Positions 4,892 through 22,824 of a stretch of 42,535 bases of DNA are shown here, in pieces. Location of the stretch: positions 1 through 42,535 of the forward strand of contig CABYIR010000012.1 in NCBI GenBank assembly GCA_902518955.1, in the 5' to 3' direction. The notes below the pieces were generated by a model, which had not been told where the DNA came from, did no database searches, and saw only the letters and a program-made list of their open reading frames with translations. The first letter of the stretch is position 1. Each line of letters begins with the position of its first letter. Both the position numbers and the translations under genes were made by a program. The DNA is from an uncultured Pelagibacteraceae bacterium. Its GTDB lineage: Bacteria > Pseudomonadota > Alphaproteobacteria > Pelagibacterales > AG-422-B15.

Positions 4892-5850
4892 TGTTAAAAG
4901 ATTTTAATTTAGATAATTTTGAATTAATAAAAAATAACGAAATCAAACTCAATGTTTATTGTGATGGGATTGGACCATTAGTGATTATGGCACACGGTTG
5001 GCCTGAGTCATGGTATTCCTGGAGACATCAGATTAAGTTTCTAGTAGCAAATGGATTTTCAGTAGCCGTATTAGATATGAGAGGATACGGAGACTCATCA
5101 AAGCCTCATTCAATTACTGATTATGATATTAAGAAACTAACATCAGATATAATCGTGACCGCAGATTATTTAAACGCAGAAAATTTTTATTTGATGGGAC
5201 ATGATTGGGGGGCACCGGTAGTTTGGAACACATGTTTAGATTTTGAGTCGAGAGTTATAAAAGCTTGTGGCATGAGCGTTCCCTATATGGTTTCGCAAAG
5301 TTCTCCAATTGAAACAATGAAGTTTCTTTTTAAGGATTACTTTTTTTATATGTTATATTTTCAAAATGAGGGGATAATAGAAAAAGAATTGGAAAAAGAC
5401 ATGAAGTCATCATTGATGAATATATATGGATCATTACAATCTGATGGTTCTTCATCTGAAACATTTCAGCCTAAACCTCTTACAAAAGATATGACTTTTC
5501 TAAAGTCAATTGGCTCATTTGATAAGATTCCTAAATGGTTAACTGAAGAAGATTTTAATTATTATCTCAGTAGATTTCAAAATGGAGGTATGAGAGGACC
5601 AATAAATTGGTACAGAAATATAGACCGCAATTGGGAGATAACCAAAGATACTCATCAATTAAAAATTAATGTTCCAACATGTTTTCTATGTGGGGAAGAC
5701 GATCCTGTAAGTGTTTGGGCGCCAATCGATAAGAATAACTACTCTCTACTTGAATTAAGCAAAATTATTAAAGGTGCAGGTCATTGGCTTCAGCAAGAGA
5801 AGCCAGATGAGGTAAACAAGATTATTTTAGATTTTTTTAAACCTAATTAA
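4891..5850 (+). CDS. Epoxide hydrolase-like alpha/beta hydrolase
   Basis: A 319-aa cytoplasmic alpha/beta hydrolase with soluble epoxide hydrolase features. HGWP at 35-38 forms the oxyanion hole, Asp105 in GHDWGAP is the nucleophile, Asp270/271 the probable acid, and His298 in GAGHW the general base. Cap tyrosines that polarise the epoxide are likely Tyr156 (YFQ) and Tyr241 (WYRN). An aspartate nucleophile distinguishes it from serine esterases, although haloalkane dehalogenases share this feature; the two tyrosines favour epoxide hydrolase. It is translationally coupled to the thioesterase through a TAATG junction. The natural substrate is unknown. Confidence 0.82.
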   Translation: MLKDFNLDNFELIKNNEIKLNVYCDGIGPLVIMAHGWPESWYSWRHQIKFLVANGFSVAVLDMRGYGDSSKPHSITDYDIKKLTSDIIVTADYLNAENFYLMGHDWGAPVVWNTCLDFESRVIKACGMSVPYMVSQSSPIETMKFLFKDYFFYMLYFQNEGIIEKELEKDMKSSLMNIYGSLQSDGSSSETFQPKPLTKDMTFLKSIGSFDKIPKWLTEEDFNYYLSRFQNGGMRGPINWYRNIDRNWEITKDTHQLKINVPTCFLCGEDDPVSVWAPIDKNNYSLLELSKIIKGAGHWLQQEKPDEVNKIILDFFKPN

Positions 5851-5895
5851 ATTGATTGCAGTATCATTTGATTTTATATACATTCATTCAGTTTT

Positions 5896-5972
<77 letters not shown>

Positions 5973-5992
5973 TCATTAGTTAAGTTGACCAC

Positions 5993-7033
5993 ATGAATAA
6001 GCCTACTGATAAAAATTTTAAAATGCCAGCTGAATGGCACAGTCACGACTGCTGCTGGATGCAATGGCCAACTGATGTGACTGGAGATTACTCTGAGATT
6101 GAGTCTTGGGCTCATTTCGACTTAGAGAAAGCAAGAGTAGCATGGGCAAATGTCGCAAATACCATTTCTAAATTTGAAGAGTTAAAAATGATAGTCCACC
6201 CAGATAATATTTCTAGTGCTCAAAGTTTATTGAATTCTTCCATAAAAGTTCTACCTCTTGAATTAAATGATGCGTGGGCTAGAGACTCCGGAGCAATATT
6301 TTTATTGGATAAGGATGGTAAGTTGGGTGGAGTTGATTCTGATTTTAATTGTTGGGGATATAAAATTAATTTTGAATTGGATGATAAAGTTGCAAAGTTT
6401 ATGATCAATGAGTCTAAAGCAGAGTATTTTAAAAATAATATGGTCTTAGAAGGTGGATCCATTCATGTCGATGGAGAAGGAACTTTATTGACCACAGAGC
6501 AGTGCTTATTAAATAAAAATAGAAATCCATCATTATCTAAATTAGAAATAGAAAAAAATCTAAAGGAGTATTTTGGTATTAGTAAAGTAATTTGGTTAAA
6601 GCATGGAACAGATGAAGGAACTGATGGCCATATAGATAATGTAGCATGTTTTACAGAACCAGGTGTCGTTTCTGCAATGGTATGTAGTGATAAAAATGAT
6701 TCTTATTATGATATATTAAATGAAAATTTAGAGATACTTAAAACATCAACAGACTCTAAGGGCAAAAGGCTTAAAGTTATTGAAATTGAAATGTCATACC
6801 GAAGGCTTTTACCCGGTAGTGATGAGCCTTGCTCTTATATTAACTACTATATAGCAAATGCTGGAATCATTATGCCTATTTATAATGATACAAAGGCAGA
6901 TGAGGCTGCTGTAAATCAAATTAAGTCTGCTTTTCCAGATAGGAAAGTTGTTTGCATTGATGGTCATGATATACATATGGGTGGAGGTAATGTACATTGT
7001 ATTACCCAACAACAACCGAAAGGTCACTTATGA
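5993..7033 (+). CDS. aguA: Agmatine deiminase
   Basis: A 346-aa guanidino-group-modifying enzyme that converts agmatine to N-carbamoylputrescine and ammonia. Family motifs are seen in order: PAEWHSHDCCWMQWP at the N-terminus, NDAWARDSGAIF, LEGGSIHVDGEGT, GTDGHIDNVACF, and GGGNVHCITQQQP at the C-terminus with nucleophile Cys336. The length is close to the usual 350-370. Its stop overlaps the start of the amidase gene by 4 bp (ATGA), and together they make putrescine by the plant/pseudomonad-type route. No arginine decarboxylase is in the window, so agmatine may be imported or made from a distant locus. Confidence 0.95.
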   Translation: MNKPTDKNFKMPAEWHSHDCCWMQWPTDVTGDYSEIESWAHFDLEKARVAWANVANTISKFEELKMIVHPDNISSAQSLLNSSIKVLPLELNDAWARDSGAIFLLDKDGKLGGVDSDFNCWGYKINFELDDKVAKFMINESKAEYFKNNMVLEGGSIHVDGEGTLLTTEQCLLNKNRNPSLSKLEIEKNLKEYFGISKVIWLKHGTDEGTDGHIDNVACFTEPGVVSAMVCSDKNDSYYDILNENLEILKTSTDSKGKRLKVIEIEMSYRRLLPGSDEPCSYINYYIANAGIIMPIYNDTKADEAAVNQIKSAFPDRKVVCIDGHDIHMGGGNVHCITQQQPKGHL

Positions 7034-7896
7034 GAGAAATAAAAGTTGCTGCTACTCAAATGGCTTGTTCAACAAATACAGACGAAAATGTCGATAAAGC
7101 AATTGAATTAATTGTCAAAGCTTCAAAAGAAGGAGCGAATATTATTCTTATCCAAGAATTATTCGGGAATGTCTATTTTTGTAAAGATCAAAAAGATCAG
7201 TATTTTGATTTAGCAATGCCATTTGATGGCCATCCAATTCTAAATACAATGTCAAAAGTAGCAAAAGAACACAATGTAGTTTTACCAATAAGCTATTTTG
7301 AAAAATCTAATAAGGCTTATTTTAATTCGGTGGCAATTATTGATGCAGATGGATCTATTTTAGGTAACTATCGTAAATCTCACATTCCTGATGGTCCTGG
7401 ATACCAAGAAAAATTTTATTTTAATCCAGGAGATACTGGATTCAAAGTTTGGGATACAAGTTTTGCAAAAATTGGAGTTGGAATTTGTTGGGATCAATGG
7501 TCTTCAGAGGCGGCAAGAATTATGTCACTTCAAGGTGCCGAGGTTATTTTTTATCCAACTGCAATAGGCGGTGAACCAGATAATGAAGATGATTATGACA
7601 GTTCTGATATGTGGCAAAGAGCCATGATCGGACACTCAGCTTGTAATCAAGTTCCTATAGTTGCTTCAAATCGTATTGGAACAGAATCGGGCGATACATG
7701 TAATAATTTCTTTTATGGTCGTTCATTTATCGCTGACTATAAAAGTGATATGCTTGCAGAAGGAAGTAGAGATAAAGAAGAAGTGCTTGTTGCAAGTATA
7801 AATTTAGATGAAGCTGAATCATTTAGAAGAACTTGGGGTATCTTTAGAGATAGAAGGCCTGATCTATACGCACCCCTAATGAGCCTAGATGGATAG
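7030..7896 (+). CDS. aguB: N-carbamoylputrescine amidase
   Basis: A 288-aa nitrilase-superfamily enzyme that hydrolyses N-carbamoylputrescine to putrescine, CO2 and ammonia. The catalytic triad is visible: Glu43 (IQELFG), Lys116 (YRKSHIPDGPGY) and Cys153 (GICWDQW). I use the ATG at 7030, which overlaps the aguA stop as ATGA and gives the family-typical MREIKVAATQ. An upstream in-frame ATG at 6997 would add eleven residues and a longer overlap, and is unlikely. Substrate assignment rests on the motifs plus coupling to aguA. Confidence 0.95.
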   Translation: MREIKVAATQMACSTNTDENVDKAIELIVKASKEGANIILIQELFGNVYFCKDQKDQYFDLAMPFDGHPILNTMSKVAKEHNVVLPISYFEKSNKAYFNSVAIIDADGSILGNYRKSHIPDGPGYQEKFYFNPGDTGFKVWDTSFAKIGVGICWDQWSSEAARIMSLQGAEVIFYPTAIGGEPDNEDDYDSSDMWQRAMIGHSACNQVPIVASNRIGTESGDTCNNFFYGRSFIADYKSDMLAEGSRDKEEVLVASINLDEAESFRRTWGIFRDRRPDLYAPLMSLDG

Positions 7897-7905
7897 ATTA
7901 AAGGT

Positions 7906-8184
7906 ATGAAAGCTAAAATATTTAGACCTTCTAAAACTGCGATGCAATCAGGAAGAGCAAAAGAAAAATCATGGAAGCTGATAATGGATGATGGGTCTCA
8001 TCAAACTAAAGATCCCCTAATTGGCTGGAATGGTGGAGCCACTACCAAGTCACAGATTAATTTATTTTTTTCGTCTAAGGAAAAGGCAATAAATTATGCT
8101 GAAAGGCATAAATTGGATTATGATGTTCTTGAATCTTCGAGTAGAAGAATTATAAGTAAGTCATACGCGGATAATTTTAAATAA
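7906..8184 (+). CDS. NDUFA4-type complex I accessory protein
   Basis: A 92-aa protein matching the 'ETC complex I subunit conserved region' family (PF04800), the alphaproteobacterial relative of mitochondrial NDUFS4 (18 kDa subunit). Recognisable parts are the N-terminal KIFRPSKTAMQSG, the central WKLIMDDG, and DPLIGWNGGATTKSQI followed by a helix with AINYAER. It is expected to bind the peripheral arm of NADH dehydrogenase. It sits 9 bp after aguB with an AAAGG ribosome site, so it may be carried on the agu transcript although the functions are unrelated. The nuo genes are not nearby. Confidence 0.85.
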   Translation: MKAKIFRPSKTAMQSGRAKEKSWKLIMDDGSHQTKDPLIGWNGGATTKSQINLFFSSKEKAINYAERHKLDYDVLESSSRRIISKSYADNFK

Positions 8185-8186
8185 AT

Positions 8187-8262
<76 letters not shown>

Positions 8263-8267
8263 ATATA

Positions 8268-8897
8268 ATGAAAAAAATTTTATTTCTATTTTCAATTTTA
8301 GTTTCATCAAGTGCTCTAGCTGATACAGCTTATGATTTATATATGAGTGGAAATAAGGCTGAGGGCATAGCCAAATGGCAAGACGAAGCAAATAAAGGAA
8401 ATTCTTCAGCTAAATATGTAATTGGAATGCTGTATAATGACTCTGCTCAATTAGGACTTTGTGAGATTCAAGATTTTTGTGTTTTTAAAAAATTCTCTAA
8501 TTATAGAAAAGCCAAAAAAATATTTGAAGAACTATATAATGAAGAGAGTGATCCTAGGGCAGCGTATGCACTTGCGGAATACTATGATGATCATCCTTTG
8601 ATAATCACAAATTATAAAAAAGCCGCTCAATTATATTTATTTGCAGCTGAACGAGGTGTTCCAGAAGCACAATATAATATCGCCAATATGTATGAAAGAG
8701 GTGAGGGAGTTAAGAAAGATCTTGTTCAATCGGTTAGATGGTATTTGCAATGTAATGTTTCCTCATTGTGTGCAGCTGGCCAAGAAGGTATTGATGATTT
8801 AATAGTTCAATTAACTGATGAAGAATTTGATTATGCAAAATCGTCGGTAGATCATGAGATAAAAGACGTTGATATAAGAATAACTGTTGGGCGATAG
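8268..8897 (+). CDS. Exported Sel1-repeat protein
   Basis: A 209-aa protein with a clear signal peptide (about residues 1-18, ending SSALA) and Sel1-like TPR repeats. The best repeats are around residues 75-105 (RAAYALAEYYDDHP) and 112-150 (AAQLYLFAAERG, then EAQYNIANMYERGEGV). A degenerate first repeat lies near residues 25-60. Sel1 proteins usually act as scaffolds for protein-protein contacts in the periplasm or envelope. The start is only 5 bp after tRNA-Arg, which leaves no room for a normal ribosome site outside the tRNA. The function is unknown, and no neighbour suggests a partner. Confidence 0.75.
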   Translation: MKKILFLFSILVSSSALADTAYDLYMSGNKAEGIAKWQDEANKGNSSAKYVIGMLYNDSAQLGLCEIQDFCVFKKFSNYRKAKKIFEELYNEESDPRAAYALAEYYDDHPLIITNYKKAAQLYLFAAERGVPEAQYNIANMYERGEGVKKDLVQSVRWYLQCNVSSLCAAGQEGIDDLIVQLTDEEFDYAKSSVDHEIKDVDIRITVGR

Positions 8898-20090: not shown

Positions 20091-22412
20091 ATGAGATTAT
20101 TAATTTTAATTATTTTATCAATTTGGTTTCTTTCTGCTTGCGGCGGCGGCGGCGGTGGATCTCCATCATTTGTTCATGACATAAATAATGTTCCAAAATG
20201 TTCTGATACTGGTACCGCCTTTCAAACTACAGAATATTATTTTATGGATTATAACGATTCAACAGATAAGGCATTAGCCCAAGTTTGTGCAAGTACAGCA
20301 TATGCTAATGGAGCAACTGGTGGATCTGGAGTAAAAATAGGAATTAATGATACGGGCTTACATTTGCAATCTGATGGTAAAATGGATCATCAAGAATTTG
20401 GGGATGTTGGTAGTGCAAATTCAAGGATTATTCTCGGTTATAATTCAGATGTTGTAAGAAATGATGAAGTACCAGAGGATGAGGATGGACACGGATCACA
20501 TGTTGCGGGCATTATTGGTGCCGATAAAGATAATGTTGGTATGCATGGAATTGCTTATAACGCAACATTATATCCAATAAAAACTCTTACTCCAAGAGGT
20601 AGCCCTCATTCAGTTGCTGGAAAATACACAGTTGCTTGGGGATTTTACTTAACTGATTATTATGATTTAGACATTATCAATAATAGTTGGGGATATCCTG
20701 AGTCAGAAATAGGGGTAACTTGTAATAGTAAAGAAACTTGTGAGAGCGCTTTAAATGATGCAACAAGTTATAGCTACACATATTACTATTTTCAAAGAAT
20801 GGCCTCAGAACAAAATGCTATGCTTGTTTGGTCAGCTGGCAATCAAAGTAAAGATAACCCAAGTGCCCTGAATGGAGCTTGTATATATGATAGCTTAGTA
20901 ACTGAAAATTGTGTAATTGTTGTTGCTTTAGGCACAGATGGCAAGATCGCTGATTATAGCAACAAATGTGGTATCGCTTCTGCTGTTTGTATATCTGCTC
21001 CAGGTAGCCTTGTTTCTGCTTATAATGATAGTACAGATAGTTATTACGAACTGTCAGGTACATCAATGGCAGCTCCATTGGTATCTGGAGGTTTAGCATT
21101 AATTAAACAAGTTCATACATCTTTAACACATGCGCAAGTAATAGATCGACTATTTGCTACCGCCGTAGATCACGACATTTATTCACAATCAAGTATTTAT
21201 GGGCATGGATTAATGGATATAGGGGCGGCTACGTCTGCAATTGGCTCACTTCAATTGATAAGTGCCAATTCAAATAACTTAGATTCGCAGAAATCGTCTT
21301 ATACTGAAATATACGAAAATTCGTTTAATTCTAATTCATCTTTTTACTCTGGCTTAAAAGAGTCTTTAAAAAATAAAACCATAGAAGTATATGATAGTTT
21401 TGATCGTGCAAATTTCTCAGTTTATATAGATAGTTTTCTTCAGAATATCAAGATTACAGAAGAATATTCAGCCACAAAACACTTAGATAATTTATTAAAA
21501 ATAGACGATGACTATTCAATGATGAACAATGATTATGGTGTATTAAAATCGTATAATACAAAATCTTTAACTAGATCATTATTTGAAACTAATAATAATA
21601 AACTTAGGATTGCAACTAATATGCAGTCAAATTTATTTTTTGATAAATCAAGAACGAGAATGGGTTTTAATTCACCAAAATTAATAACTAAATTTTTTGG
21701 AAACCCATATTTTTATAATGATAATGAGAATGTTTCACTTAATATAAATAATAAATACGTATCTTCAAATCTTTTTGTTGATGAAGAATTGGATAATATT
21801 GGTATATCTATAAATATTCAGCCTACCTCAGAAGATTTTTTTAATAATGACTCATTAGGAAACATTGAAATTTCTTTAGGACGATCCCTTGAAAAAAATA
21901 AAATACTTAATTCTTATGGAACTGGATCATTTAATATCAGCGATATCTCTAATACAAAATTTGCAGCAATTAAATATAAAAAAGAGTTTGAGAAAATTAA
22001 TGTTTTTGGGAATATGAATTATGGATCTACAGAACTAAAATCAAATTCTTATTTTTTAGGTAATGAGGCAATAACTACTAGTAGTTTTTCACTTGGTTTT
22101 ATAAAGAGTGATTTTATCAATAGAAAAAATAGAATATCAATTTTAATCAGCCAACCACAAAAAGTAATAGATGGATCTATTGGCTTGCGAGTTCCTACTT
22201 CATCAAATAATAAGCGTGAGGTAAATTATACCACTTACGACTTGAATTTAGCTCCTGATGCTACAGAGATTAATTATGATTTGTTATTTGCTAGAGATAT
22301 TAACAAAAATGACTCATTTTATTTAAACTACACTCACATTAAGAACCCGATTCATAGTAATTCAAACTCATCTGTAAATAATGTTTCCTTACTTTTTAAA
22401 AAATTGTTTTAA
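20091..22412 (+). CDS. NalP-like lipoprotein subtilisin-family protease, probable autotransporter
   Basis: A 773-aa S8 serine protease. A lipoprotein signal ends in LSAC with Cys17 as the lipidation site, followed by six glycines encoded by GGC/GGT/GGA codons at 20142-20159. The catalytic triad is Asp87 (INDTG), His134 (GHGSHVAG) and Ser325 (SGTSMAAP), with Asn251 (SAGN) in the oxyanion hole. After residue ~400 the sequence becomes Asn/Ser-rich with alternating hydrophobic strands and ends in ...SLLFKKLF, suggesting an outer-membrane beta barrel. A lipidated subtilase autotransporter with a glycine run recalls neisserial NalP. The barrel is inferred, not proven. The next gene overlaps by 32 bp. 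Confidence 0.82.
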   Translation: MRLLILIILSIWFLSACGGGGGGSPSFVHDINNVPKCSDTGTAFQTTEYYFMDYNDSTDKALAQVCASTAYANGATGGSGVKIGINDTGLHLQSDGKMDHQEFGDVGSANSRIILGYNSDVVRNDEVPEDEDGHGSHVAGIIGADKDNVGMHGIAYNATLYPIKTLTPRGSPHSVAGKYTVAWGFYLTDYYDLDIINNSWGYPESEIGVTCNSKETCESALNDATSYSYTYYYFQRMASEQNAMLVWSAGNQSKDNPSALNGACIYDSLVTENCVIVVALGTDGKIADYSNKCGIASAVCISAPGSLVSAYNDSTDSYYELSGTSMAAPLVSGGLALIKQVHTSLTHAQVIDRLFATAVDHDIYSQSSIYGHGLMDIGAATSAIGSLQLISANSNNLDSQKSSYTEIYENSFNSNSSFYSGLKESLKNKTIEVYDSFDRANFSVYIDSFLQNIKITEEYSATKHLDNLLKIDDDYSMMNNDYGVLKSYNTKSLTRSLFETNNNKLRIATNMQSNLFFDKSRTRMGFNSPKLITKFFGNPYFYNDNENVSLNINNKYVSSNLFVDEELDNIGISINIQPTSEDFFNNDSLGNIEISLGRSLEKNKILNSYGTGSFNISDISNTKFAAIKYKKEFEKINVFGNMNYGSTELKSNSYFLGNEAITTSSFSLGFIKSDFINRKNRISILISQPQKVIDGSIGLRVPTSSNNKREVNYTTYDLNLAPDATEINYDLLFARDINKNDSFYLNYTHIKNPIHSNSNSSVNNVSLLFKKLF

Positions 22413-22824
22413 CAATTATAAATTTTTTTATTTATTTATTCTGATTTCTTGTTCAGATTTTAAAGAAGAATACAGTCAAATTAATATTGATACATATGAA
22501 TGTAGCATTTCCCACCAAGAAATATTTGGCAGGGATTTTATTACTATTAATGATGAGTATTTTGATAAAAGTATTAATGTCGTAAATAAAATAGTTAGTA
22601 AAAGTAGTAAATATAATTTTATTTTTTCAACTGGTCCAAGAAGCTCATCTGGTTATAATTTAAACTTTCTAAATTCTTCATTAAAAAATAAAAATCTTTC
22701 TCTAGTTTTTAAGGAAAAAAAACCAAAAAAAAGTACAATTGTAGCTACGGTTATTACATATCCTTTTTGTGCTTTACTGATAGAAAATATTGAGTCATAT
22801 AATATTTCAGTTGAGATTATTTAA
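22381..22824 (+). CDS. Small lipoprotein with a PrcB_C-like domain
   Basis: A 147-aa protein starting inside the 3' end of the protease gene; no later in-frame ATG would keep the signal peptide. The hydrophobic segment ends in LISC with Cys24 as the lipidation site. Residues of about 78-147 resemble the PrcB C-terminal domain (PF14343): GPRSSSGYN with Gly91-Tyr92, an FKEKKP turn with Pro115, and VITYPF at 124-129 before a final hydrophobic strand. In Treponema denticola the lipoprotein PrcB binds and stabilises the subtilisin-like protease PrtP, so the overlap with a subtilase here fits a protease-accessory role. The domain match is by eye. Confidence 0.6.
   Translation: MFPYFLKNCFNNYKFFYLFILISCSDFKEEYSQINIDTYECSISHQEIFGRDFITINDEYFDKSINVVNKIVSKSSKYNFIFSTGPRSSSGYNLNFLNSSLKNKNLSLVFKEKKPKKSTIVATVITYPFCALLIENIESYNISVEII

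What the first reader, a model, noticed from the sequence alone, without database searches (positions are those of the whole stretch)
20091..22824. NalP-like lipoprotein subtilase overlapping a PrcB-like lipoprotein: a candidate two-part surface protease system
Seen: an S8 protease with lipobox LSAC plus six glycines, an intact Asp87/His134/Ser325 triad and a strand-rich C-terminus ending in Phe, overlapping by 32 bp a second lipoprotein (LISC lipobox). Known: neisserial NalP is a lipidated subtilase autotransporter, and Treponema PrcB is a lipoprotein that stabilises the subtilisin-like PrtP. Inference: the small lipoprotein is a chaperone, inhibitor or stabiliser dedicated to the protease, a pairing I have not seen described for streamlined marine Alphaproteobacteria.
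Basis: partly seen in the sequence, partly recalled or inferred. Interest (0 to 1): 0.7.

Follow-up and report, generated by a model that had tools for sequence, protein, structure and literature searches.

The report
Surface protease with dedicated partner lipoprotein
Some SAR11 ocean bacteria carry a lipid-anchored subtilisin-type protease whose gene overlaps that of a small secreted protein related to PrcB, the protein an oral spirochete needs to keep its own surface protease; the same pairing turns up in unrelated bacteria, so PrcB-like proteins look like recurring, testable protease partners.

Summary
The 773-aa protein is an S8 subtilase with a lipobox, poly-Gly and intact triad (PF00082 E 2.7e-42). 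The overlapping 147-aa protein matches PrcB_C above Pfam's cut-off (28.5 vs 24 bits). In 147 related genomes the two genes occur together in six and separately in none. Ten distinct SAR11 loci all show the overlap, at two chromosomal sites; at one, 11 of 11 checked genomes without the pair have the flanking genes side by side. A separate S8 lineage in Gammaproteobacteria (14 genomes, six families) also has a PrcB_C gene directly downstream; one origin of paired S8s is rejected (AU p 3.5e-6). In eight SAR11 loci the small protein varies with the S8 domain rather than the C-terminus or the species, though mostly through two close pairs. Best reading: a surface-anchored subtilase with a dedicated PrcB-like partner acting on its catalytic domain, most likely a stabiliser or maturation factor as in Treponema dentilisin; an inhibitor is the main rival. 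The NalP-type 12-strand barrel is not supported: no PF03797 similarity, and the structure model is too poor to judge. New variant of a known kind.

The parts
20091..22412 (+). S8 subtilase lipoprotein, 773 aa
   Evidence: ORF; PF00082 E 2.7e-42 at residues 78-373; homologues in 9 further SAR11 loci
20139..20159 (+). lipidation Cys17 of lipobox LSAC followed by Gly18-Gly23
   Evidence: read directly; Cys17 and the six Gly invariant in the six-sequence alignment; lipobox plus poly-Gly in all ten SAR11 proteases
20322..21209 (+). S8 catalytic domain with D87, H134, S325; Cys37, 66, 211, 217, 293, 300 invariant (probable disulfides; Cys37 and Cys66 lie just upstream of the Pfam match)
   Evidence: PF00082 place; invariant columns
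21387..22409 (+). C-terminal strand-rich region beginning YDSFDRANF and ending in Phe773; a domain family shared with unpaired SAR11 S8 proteins, barrel not shown
   Evidence: alignment; profile comparison with unpaired SAR11 S8 C-termini 99.8% probability, with PF03797-type barrels none; low-confidence model
22381..22824 (+). PrcB-like secreted lipoprotein, 147 aa
   Evidence: ORF; PF14343 28.5 bits > cut-off 24; structure model mean pLDDT 82.7
22381..22412 (+). 32-bp overlap of the two genes (+1 frame); 32-77 bp in the ten SAR11 loci
22450..22452 (+). lipobox Cys24 (LISC) of the small protein
   Evidence: read directly; lipobox in 8 of 10 homologues
22624..22782 (+). PrcB_C domain (residues 82-134)
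   Evidence: PF14343
22501..22503 (+). Cys41, invariant; possible disulfide with Cys130
   Evidence: invariant in ten SAR11 proteins; a corresponding Cys upstream of the PrcB_C domain in the gammaproteobacterial S8-linked proteins
22768..22770 (+). Cys130, invariant (YPFC; mostly TTPC/TSPC in gammaproteobacterial S8-linked relatives)

Best explanation
The two genes form a unit: a lipid-anchored subtilase carried to the cell surface, and a secreted PrcB-like partner (usually also lipidated) that binds its catalytic domain in the periplasm or at the surface. By analogy with Treponema PrcB-PrtP, the partner most likely stabilises the protease or helps it fold and mature. Shown here: domain identity, strict co-occurrence, overlap, insertion as a block, independent recurrence of the pairing. 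Suggested: co-variation with the S8 domain. Inferred: direct binding, the stabilising role, surface exposure.
For: PF00082 and PF14343 matches, 9/10 homologues with a PrcB_C match. Both genes in 6 of 147 related genomes and neither gene alone in any; all ten distinct SAR11 loci have both. Full-length protease matches in 297 genomes of the order only in the same six. The block is inserted between genes that are neighbours in 11/11 genomes lacking it. Second S8 lineage paired with PrcB_C in 14 gammaproteobacterial genomes of six families, which hold 1-6 S8 genes each where counted, often with a 4-bp overlap; paired S8s are not one clade (AU p 3.5e-6). Small-protein distances follow the S8 domain (r 0.67, p 0.008), also after control for C-terminus and flanking genes (r 0.65, p 0.011), not the C-terminus (r 0.21, p 0.11). 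No Pfam propeptide model matches at E<=1, and only about 60 residues lie between lipobox and S8 match. In T. denticola a non-polar prcB deletion leaves prtP transcribed but PrtP protein undetected, and PrcB is in the purified complex (PMC8167434).
Against: The S8/small-protein co-variation rests largely on two close pairs: without L036 and L037 r falls to 0.30, no better than the C-terminus at 0.28, and Spearman for all eight is only 0.38. Similarity to denti_PrcB is far below its equivalog cut-off (26 vs 125 bits), and no prcA gene adjoins the pair. No complex was modelled. Some PrcB_C proteins have no S8 gene nearby, so PrcB_C does not always mean protease partner. Two of ten small proteins lack a lipobox.
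Confidence: 0.6

Rival explanations
1. The small protein is a dedicated inhibitor: it blocks the protease in the periplasm until it reaches the surface, or protects the cell from its own and its neighbours' surface protease.
For: Short N-terminal region with no Pfam propeptide match leaves room for an inhibitor in trans; fast-evolving small protein whose divergence tends to follow the S8 domain.
Against: The only characterised relative, T. denticola PrcB, is required for the presence of PrtP and is part of the purified complex (PMC8167434). The gammaproteobacterial S8 partners have about 300 residues ahead of the S8 domain with weak, sub-threshold propeptide-like matches, so there a propeptide may already do that job.
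Confidence: 0.25
2. The small lipoprotein is an anchor or docking subunit that holds the processed protease at the outer membrane after its own lipidated N-terminus is removed.
For: This is one role proposed for PrcB in T. denticola, where mature PrtP has lost its acylated N-terminus (PMC8167434); 8 of 10 SAR11 partners have a lipobox.
Against: Two of ten partners have no lipobox, so anchoring cannot be the shared function; all ten proteases carry their own lipobox.
Confidence: 0.1
3. No functional link: the genes are neighbours only because they were inserted together.
For: They do occupy a variable site as a block.
Against: The same kind of pair was assembled in a separate S8 lineage; the unpaired S8 genes in this genome have no such partner.
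Confidence: 0.05

Closest known systems
Dentilisin (PrcB-PrcA-PrtP) of Treponema denticola
   Same: Lipidated S8 protease encoded in one operon with a small PrcB_C lipoprotein; weak matches to NF033596 and NF033595.
   Different: No prcA next to the pair; gene order reversed (protease first); genes overlap; both NCBIfam matches far below their equivalog cut-offs; relation of the two C-terminal domains not tested.
Lipidated subtilase autotransporters NalP and SphB1 (Group 15 of type Va; with EprS, fusolisin)
   Same: Lipobox (lipidation of NalP and SphB1: PMC9977779), S8 passenger with NCBIfam matches to EprS and fusolisin, C-terminus ending in an aromatic residue. Poly-Gly after the lipid Cys is recalled for NalP from memory, not tested.
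   Different: C-terminal region has no PF03797 similarity by sequence or profile; barrel not shown; a PrcB-like partner gene follows. I know of no such partner for NalP or SphB1.
Gammaproteobacterial S8 lipoprotein plus PrcB_C pairs (L099-L101, L133-L139, L191)
   Same: Same gene order, directly adjacent or overlapping genes, PrcB_C partner with two conserved Cys; most proteases have a lipobox.
   Different: S8 domain of another lineage; about 300 extra residues before the S8 domain in those scanned; C-terminus does not resemble the SAR11 one.
Unpaired S8 proteins of SAR86, Legionellales and Synechococcus-type cyanobacteria (L038-L048)
   Same: Closest S8 domains to the SAR11 pair (97/88 support); SAR86 ones share lipobox and poly-Gly.
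   Different: No PrcB-like gene found in the fetched stretches.

Membership tests
Peptidase S8 (subtilase) | PF00082 above its cut-off and Asp/His/Ser triad | tested here: met
   145.5 bits vs 21.8; D87, H134, S325 invariant
PrcB_C (PF14343) | score above Pfam's gathering cut-off | tested here: met
   28.5 vs 24 bits; match at E<=0.1 in 9 of 10 homologues
Dentilisin PrcB equivalog (NF033596) | score above the equivalog cut-off | tested here: not met
   26.2 vs 125 bits
Dentilisin complex | prcB-prcA-prtP operon | tested here: not met
   neighbours are ilvD upstream and a GcvT-like gene downstream; no further lipoprotein gene adjoins the pair
Dentilisin PrtP equivalog (NF033595) | score above the equivalog cut-off | tested here: not met
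   50.3 vs 300 bits
Type Va autotransporter (NalP group) | PF03797 translocator domain | tested here: not met
   no Pfam match at E<=1; no HMM or hhalign similarity to 23-28 C-termini taken from PF03797 loci
Type Va autotransporter (NalP group) | 12-strand barrel with N-terminal helix | tested here: inconclusive
   model mean pLDDT 38.7, strand-rich, no significant fold match
Lipidated surface protease | lipobox and signal peptide | tested here: met
   LSAC17 read by eye; lipobox in 10 of 10 proteases
Lipidated surface protease | lipid attached and protein exposed on the surface | not testable with these tools
   needs experiment

The most novel reading that the evidence does not exclude
A polymorphic matched pair: S8 catalytic domains are exchanged between SAR11 species onto a common C-terminal carrier, each kept with its matching PrcB-type partner, in the manner of an effector-immunity set (for example surface proteolysis between neighbours, or escape from phage or predators).
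Probability: 0.12. Interest if true: 0.85.

Novelty: new variant of a known kind. Interest (0 to 1): 0.55.

Why it matters
PrcB has been studied only in oral treponemes and was described as having no homologues elsewhere (PMC8167434). Showing that PrcB_C proteins sit next to S8 proteases in two other, phylogenetically separate lineages turns PrcB from a spirochete oddity into a candidate general partner of surface subtilases. The gammaproteobacterial pairs offer further hosts, probably easier to handle than treponemes, in which to test what it does. In SAR11, whose genomes are heavily streamlined, it marks a variable locus for surface proteolysis.

Tried and rejected
Barrel: structure model of residues 381-773 had mean pLDDT 38.7 and no significant fold match; HMM and hhalign against PF03797-type barrels gave nothing; strand-alternation scan only slightly above the shuffled null (7.8-9.6% of windows against 5%); sequence profile against PDB no match. 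Fold of the small protein: confident model, but no Foldseek match with E<=0.001 and best VIA-align Z 2.3, so no fold assignment. A2 profile against PDB: nothing credible. Viral contigs: no relative of the protease. A2 profile across 385 class genomes found only the window, although PF14343 finds another PrcB_C protein in G174 of the same class, so absence there is weak evidence. Weak small-gene hits at E 1e-4 to 1e-2 lie inside larger ORFs and were set aside. Idea that the two-Cys pattern marks S8-linked PrcB_C only: rejected, unlinked members have it too. Frameshift fusion of the two genes: considered and rejected on general grounds, since each has its own signal peptide and the required shift is +1. 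Matched-allele idea weakened by leave-out tests. One extraction script failed on a missing file and one on a regular expression and were rerun; a first S8-domain extraction lost sequences and was replaced (then 73).

Full report
Observation. Window 20091-22412 encodes a 773-aa S8 subtilase and 22381-22824 a 147-aa protein; they overlap by 32 bp. Pfam gives PF00082 E 2.7e-42 (145.5 bits) and PF14343 PrcB_C 28.5 bits (cut-off 24). NCBIfam gives only sub-threshold matches: EprS, mycosin and denti_PrtP for the protease, denti_PrcB (26.2 bits, cut-off 125) for the small protein.

Distribution in SAR11. The window's genome is a 1.17-Mb, 42-contig assembly, about 79% complete; named relatives are uncultured Pelagibacteraceae assemblies. 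Among 147 related genomes, six have the small gene at E<1e-7 and the same six have the full-length protease. A scan of GTDB contigs brought nine SAR11 loci, four of them additional, making ten distinct loci; all ten have both genes, in the same relative frame. Across 297 genomes of the order no other full-length protease was found; other S8 proteins sharing the C-terminal region exist, two of them in tandem in this genome, and no PrcB-like gene adjoins these two.

Genomic setting. The window and L029 have the pair beside ilvD. In the other eight loci the pair lies next to a DUF2794-type gene, and, where the contig reaches far enough (seven of eight), a BI-1/Bax1-like gene lies on the other side (both names are mine, not tested), with a 192-193-aa gene and sometimes a predicted outer-membrane protein gene. 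In 11 of 11 checked genomes of that family without the pair, these two flanking genes are direct neighbours. One genome, G1019, has a different S8 gene and a small probable lipoprotein without PrcB_C match at the same site.

Recurrence elsewhere. PF14343 is rare in Pseudomonadota (8 of 398 genomes). In the order of G584, 34 of 245 genomes have it, and in 14 of these (six families) an S8 gene lies directly upstream on the same strand. Thirteen of these genomes were counted and hold one to six S8 matches each, so adjacency by chance would be well under 1% per genome (my estimate). Overlaps of 4 bp are common and most of these proteases have a lipobox. The S8 tree puts the ten SAR11 proteases in one clade (98/99) among unpaired S8s of SAR86, cyanobacteria and Legionellales, and the gammaproteobacterial paired ones elsewhere. 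One clade for all paired S8s is rejected (p-AU 3.5e-6). So the pairing arose at least twice, or PrcB_C moved between S8 lineages.

The small protein. Nine of ten homologues match PF14343 and eight match denti_PrcB weakly. Eight have a lipobox. Two cysteines, 41 and 130, are invariant in SAR11, and corresponding cysteines occur in all 13 S8-linked gammaproteobacterial proteins; unlinked members can have them too. The model is confident (mean pLDDT 82.7) but no close solved fold was found.

Co-variation. Among the eight loci of one family the distance of the small protein correlates with that of the S8 domain (r 0.67, p 0.008) and not with the C-terminal region (r 0.21, p 0.11) or with flanking genes (r -0.12). 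With both as controls r is 0.65 (p 0.011). Sliding identity shows mosaics: L031 and L036 share 92-98% DNA identity over most of the S8 region but about 80% in the C-terminal part. The signal leans on the pairs L031-L036 and L035-L037: without L036 and L037 r is 0.30, against 0.28 for the C-terminus. I treat it as suggestive only. The flank set is also uneven, since one of three flanking genes was recovered in only four loci.

C-terminus. It is a domain family shared by paired and unpaired SAR11 S8 proteins (hhalign 99.8%) but has no detectable similarity to PF03797 translocators. The structure model is unusable. The name 'autotransporter' is therefore not earned yet.

Mechanism. In T. denticola, PrcB interacts with PrtP; a non-polar prcB deletion leaves prtP transcribed but no PrtP protein (PMC8167434). 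The same logic here: the protease is exported as a lipoprotein, and the partner, made from the overlapping gene, binds the catalytic domain and stabilises or matures it. Shown: identity, linkage, recurrence. Inferred: export, surface exposure, binding, stabilisation. An inhibitor role remains a serious alternative.

Literature limits. Searches covered a held open-access library only; no paper found describes PrcB-S8 pairs outside Treponema. Unpublished or subscription work may.

Noticed in passing
L141:1895-4975 and 5056-8367 (G000 contig C1): Two tandem S8 proteins of about 1030-1100 aa whose C-termini are related to that of the window protease; no PrcB-like gene adjoins them. A close relative of the second one occurs in G001.
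   Followed up: partly
L145:2073-4962 (G1019): Same chromosomal site as the pair, but occupied by a different 820-aa S8 protein and a 133-aa probable lipoprotein without PrcB_C match.
   Followed up: partly
L029:4230-4874, L030:3818-4540, L035:4278-4862, L036:4370-4966: A predicted outer-membrane protein (weak, sub-threshold OmpA_membrane match in L030 and L036) directly upstream of the protease in four of the SAR11 loci; absent in the window.
   Followed up: partly
L031/L036, L035/L037: S8 domains more alike than the C-terminal regions of the same proteins, suggesting domain exchange between SAR11 species.
   Followed up: partly
L143:179-9682 (G901): Very large (over 3100 aa) SAR11 protein with repeats, matched by the profile of the paired proteases over profile positions 203-757.
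   Followed up: no
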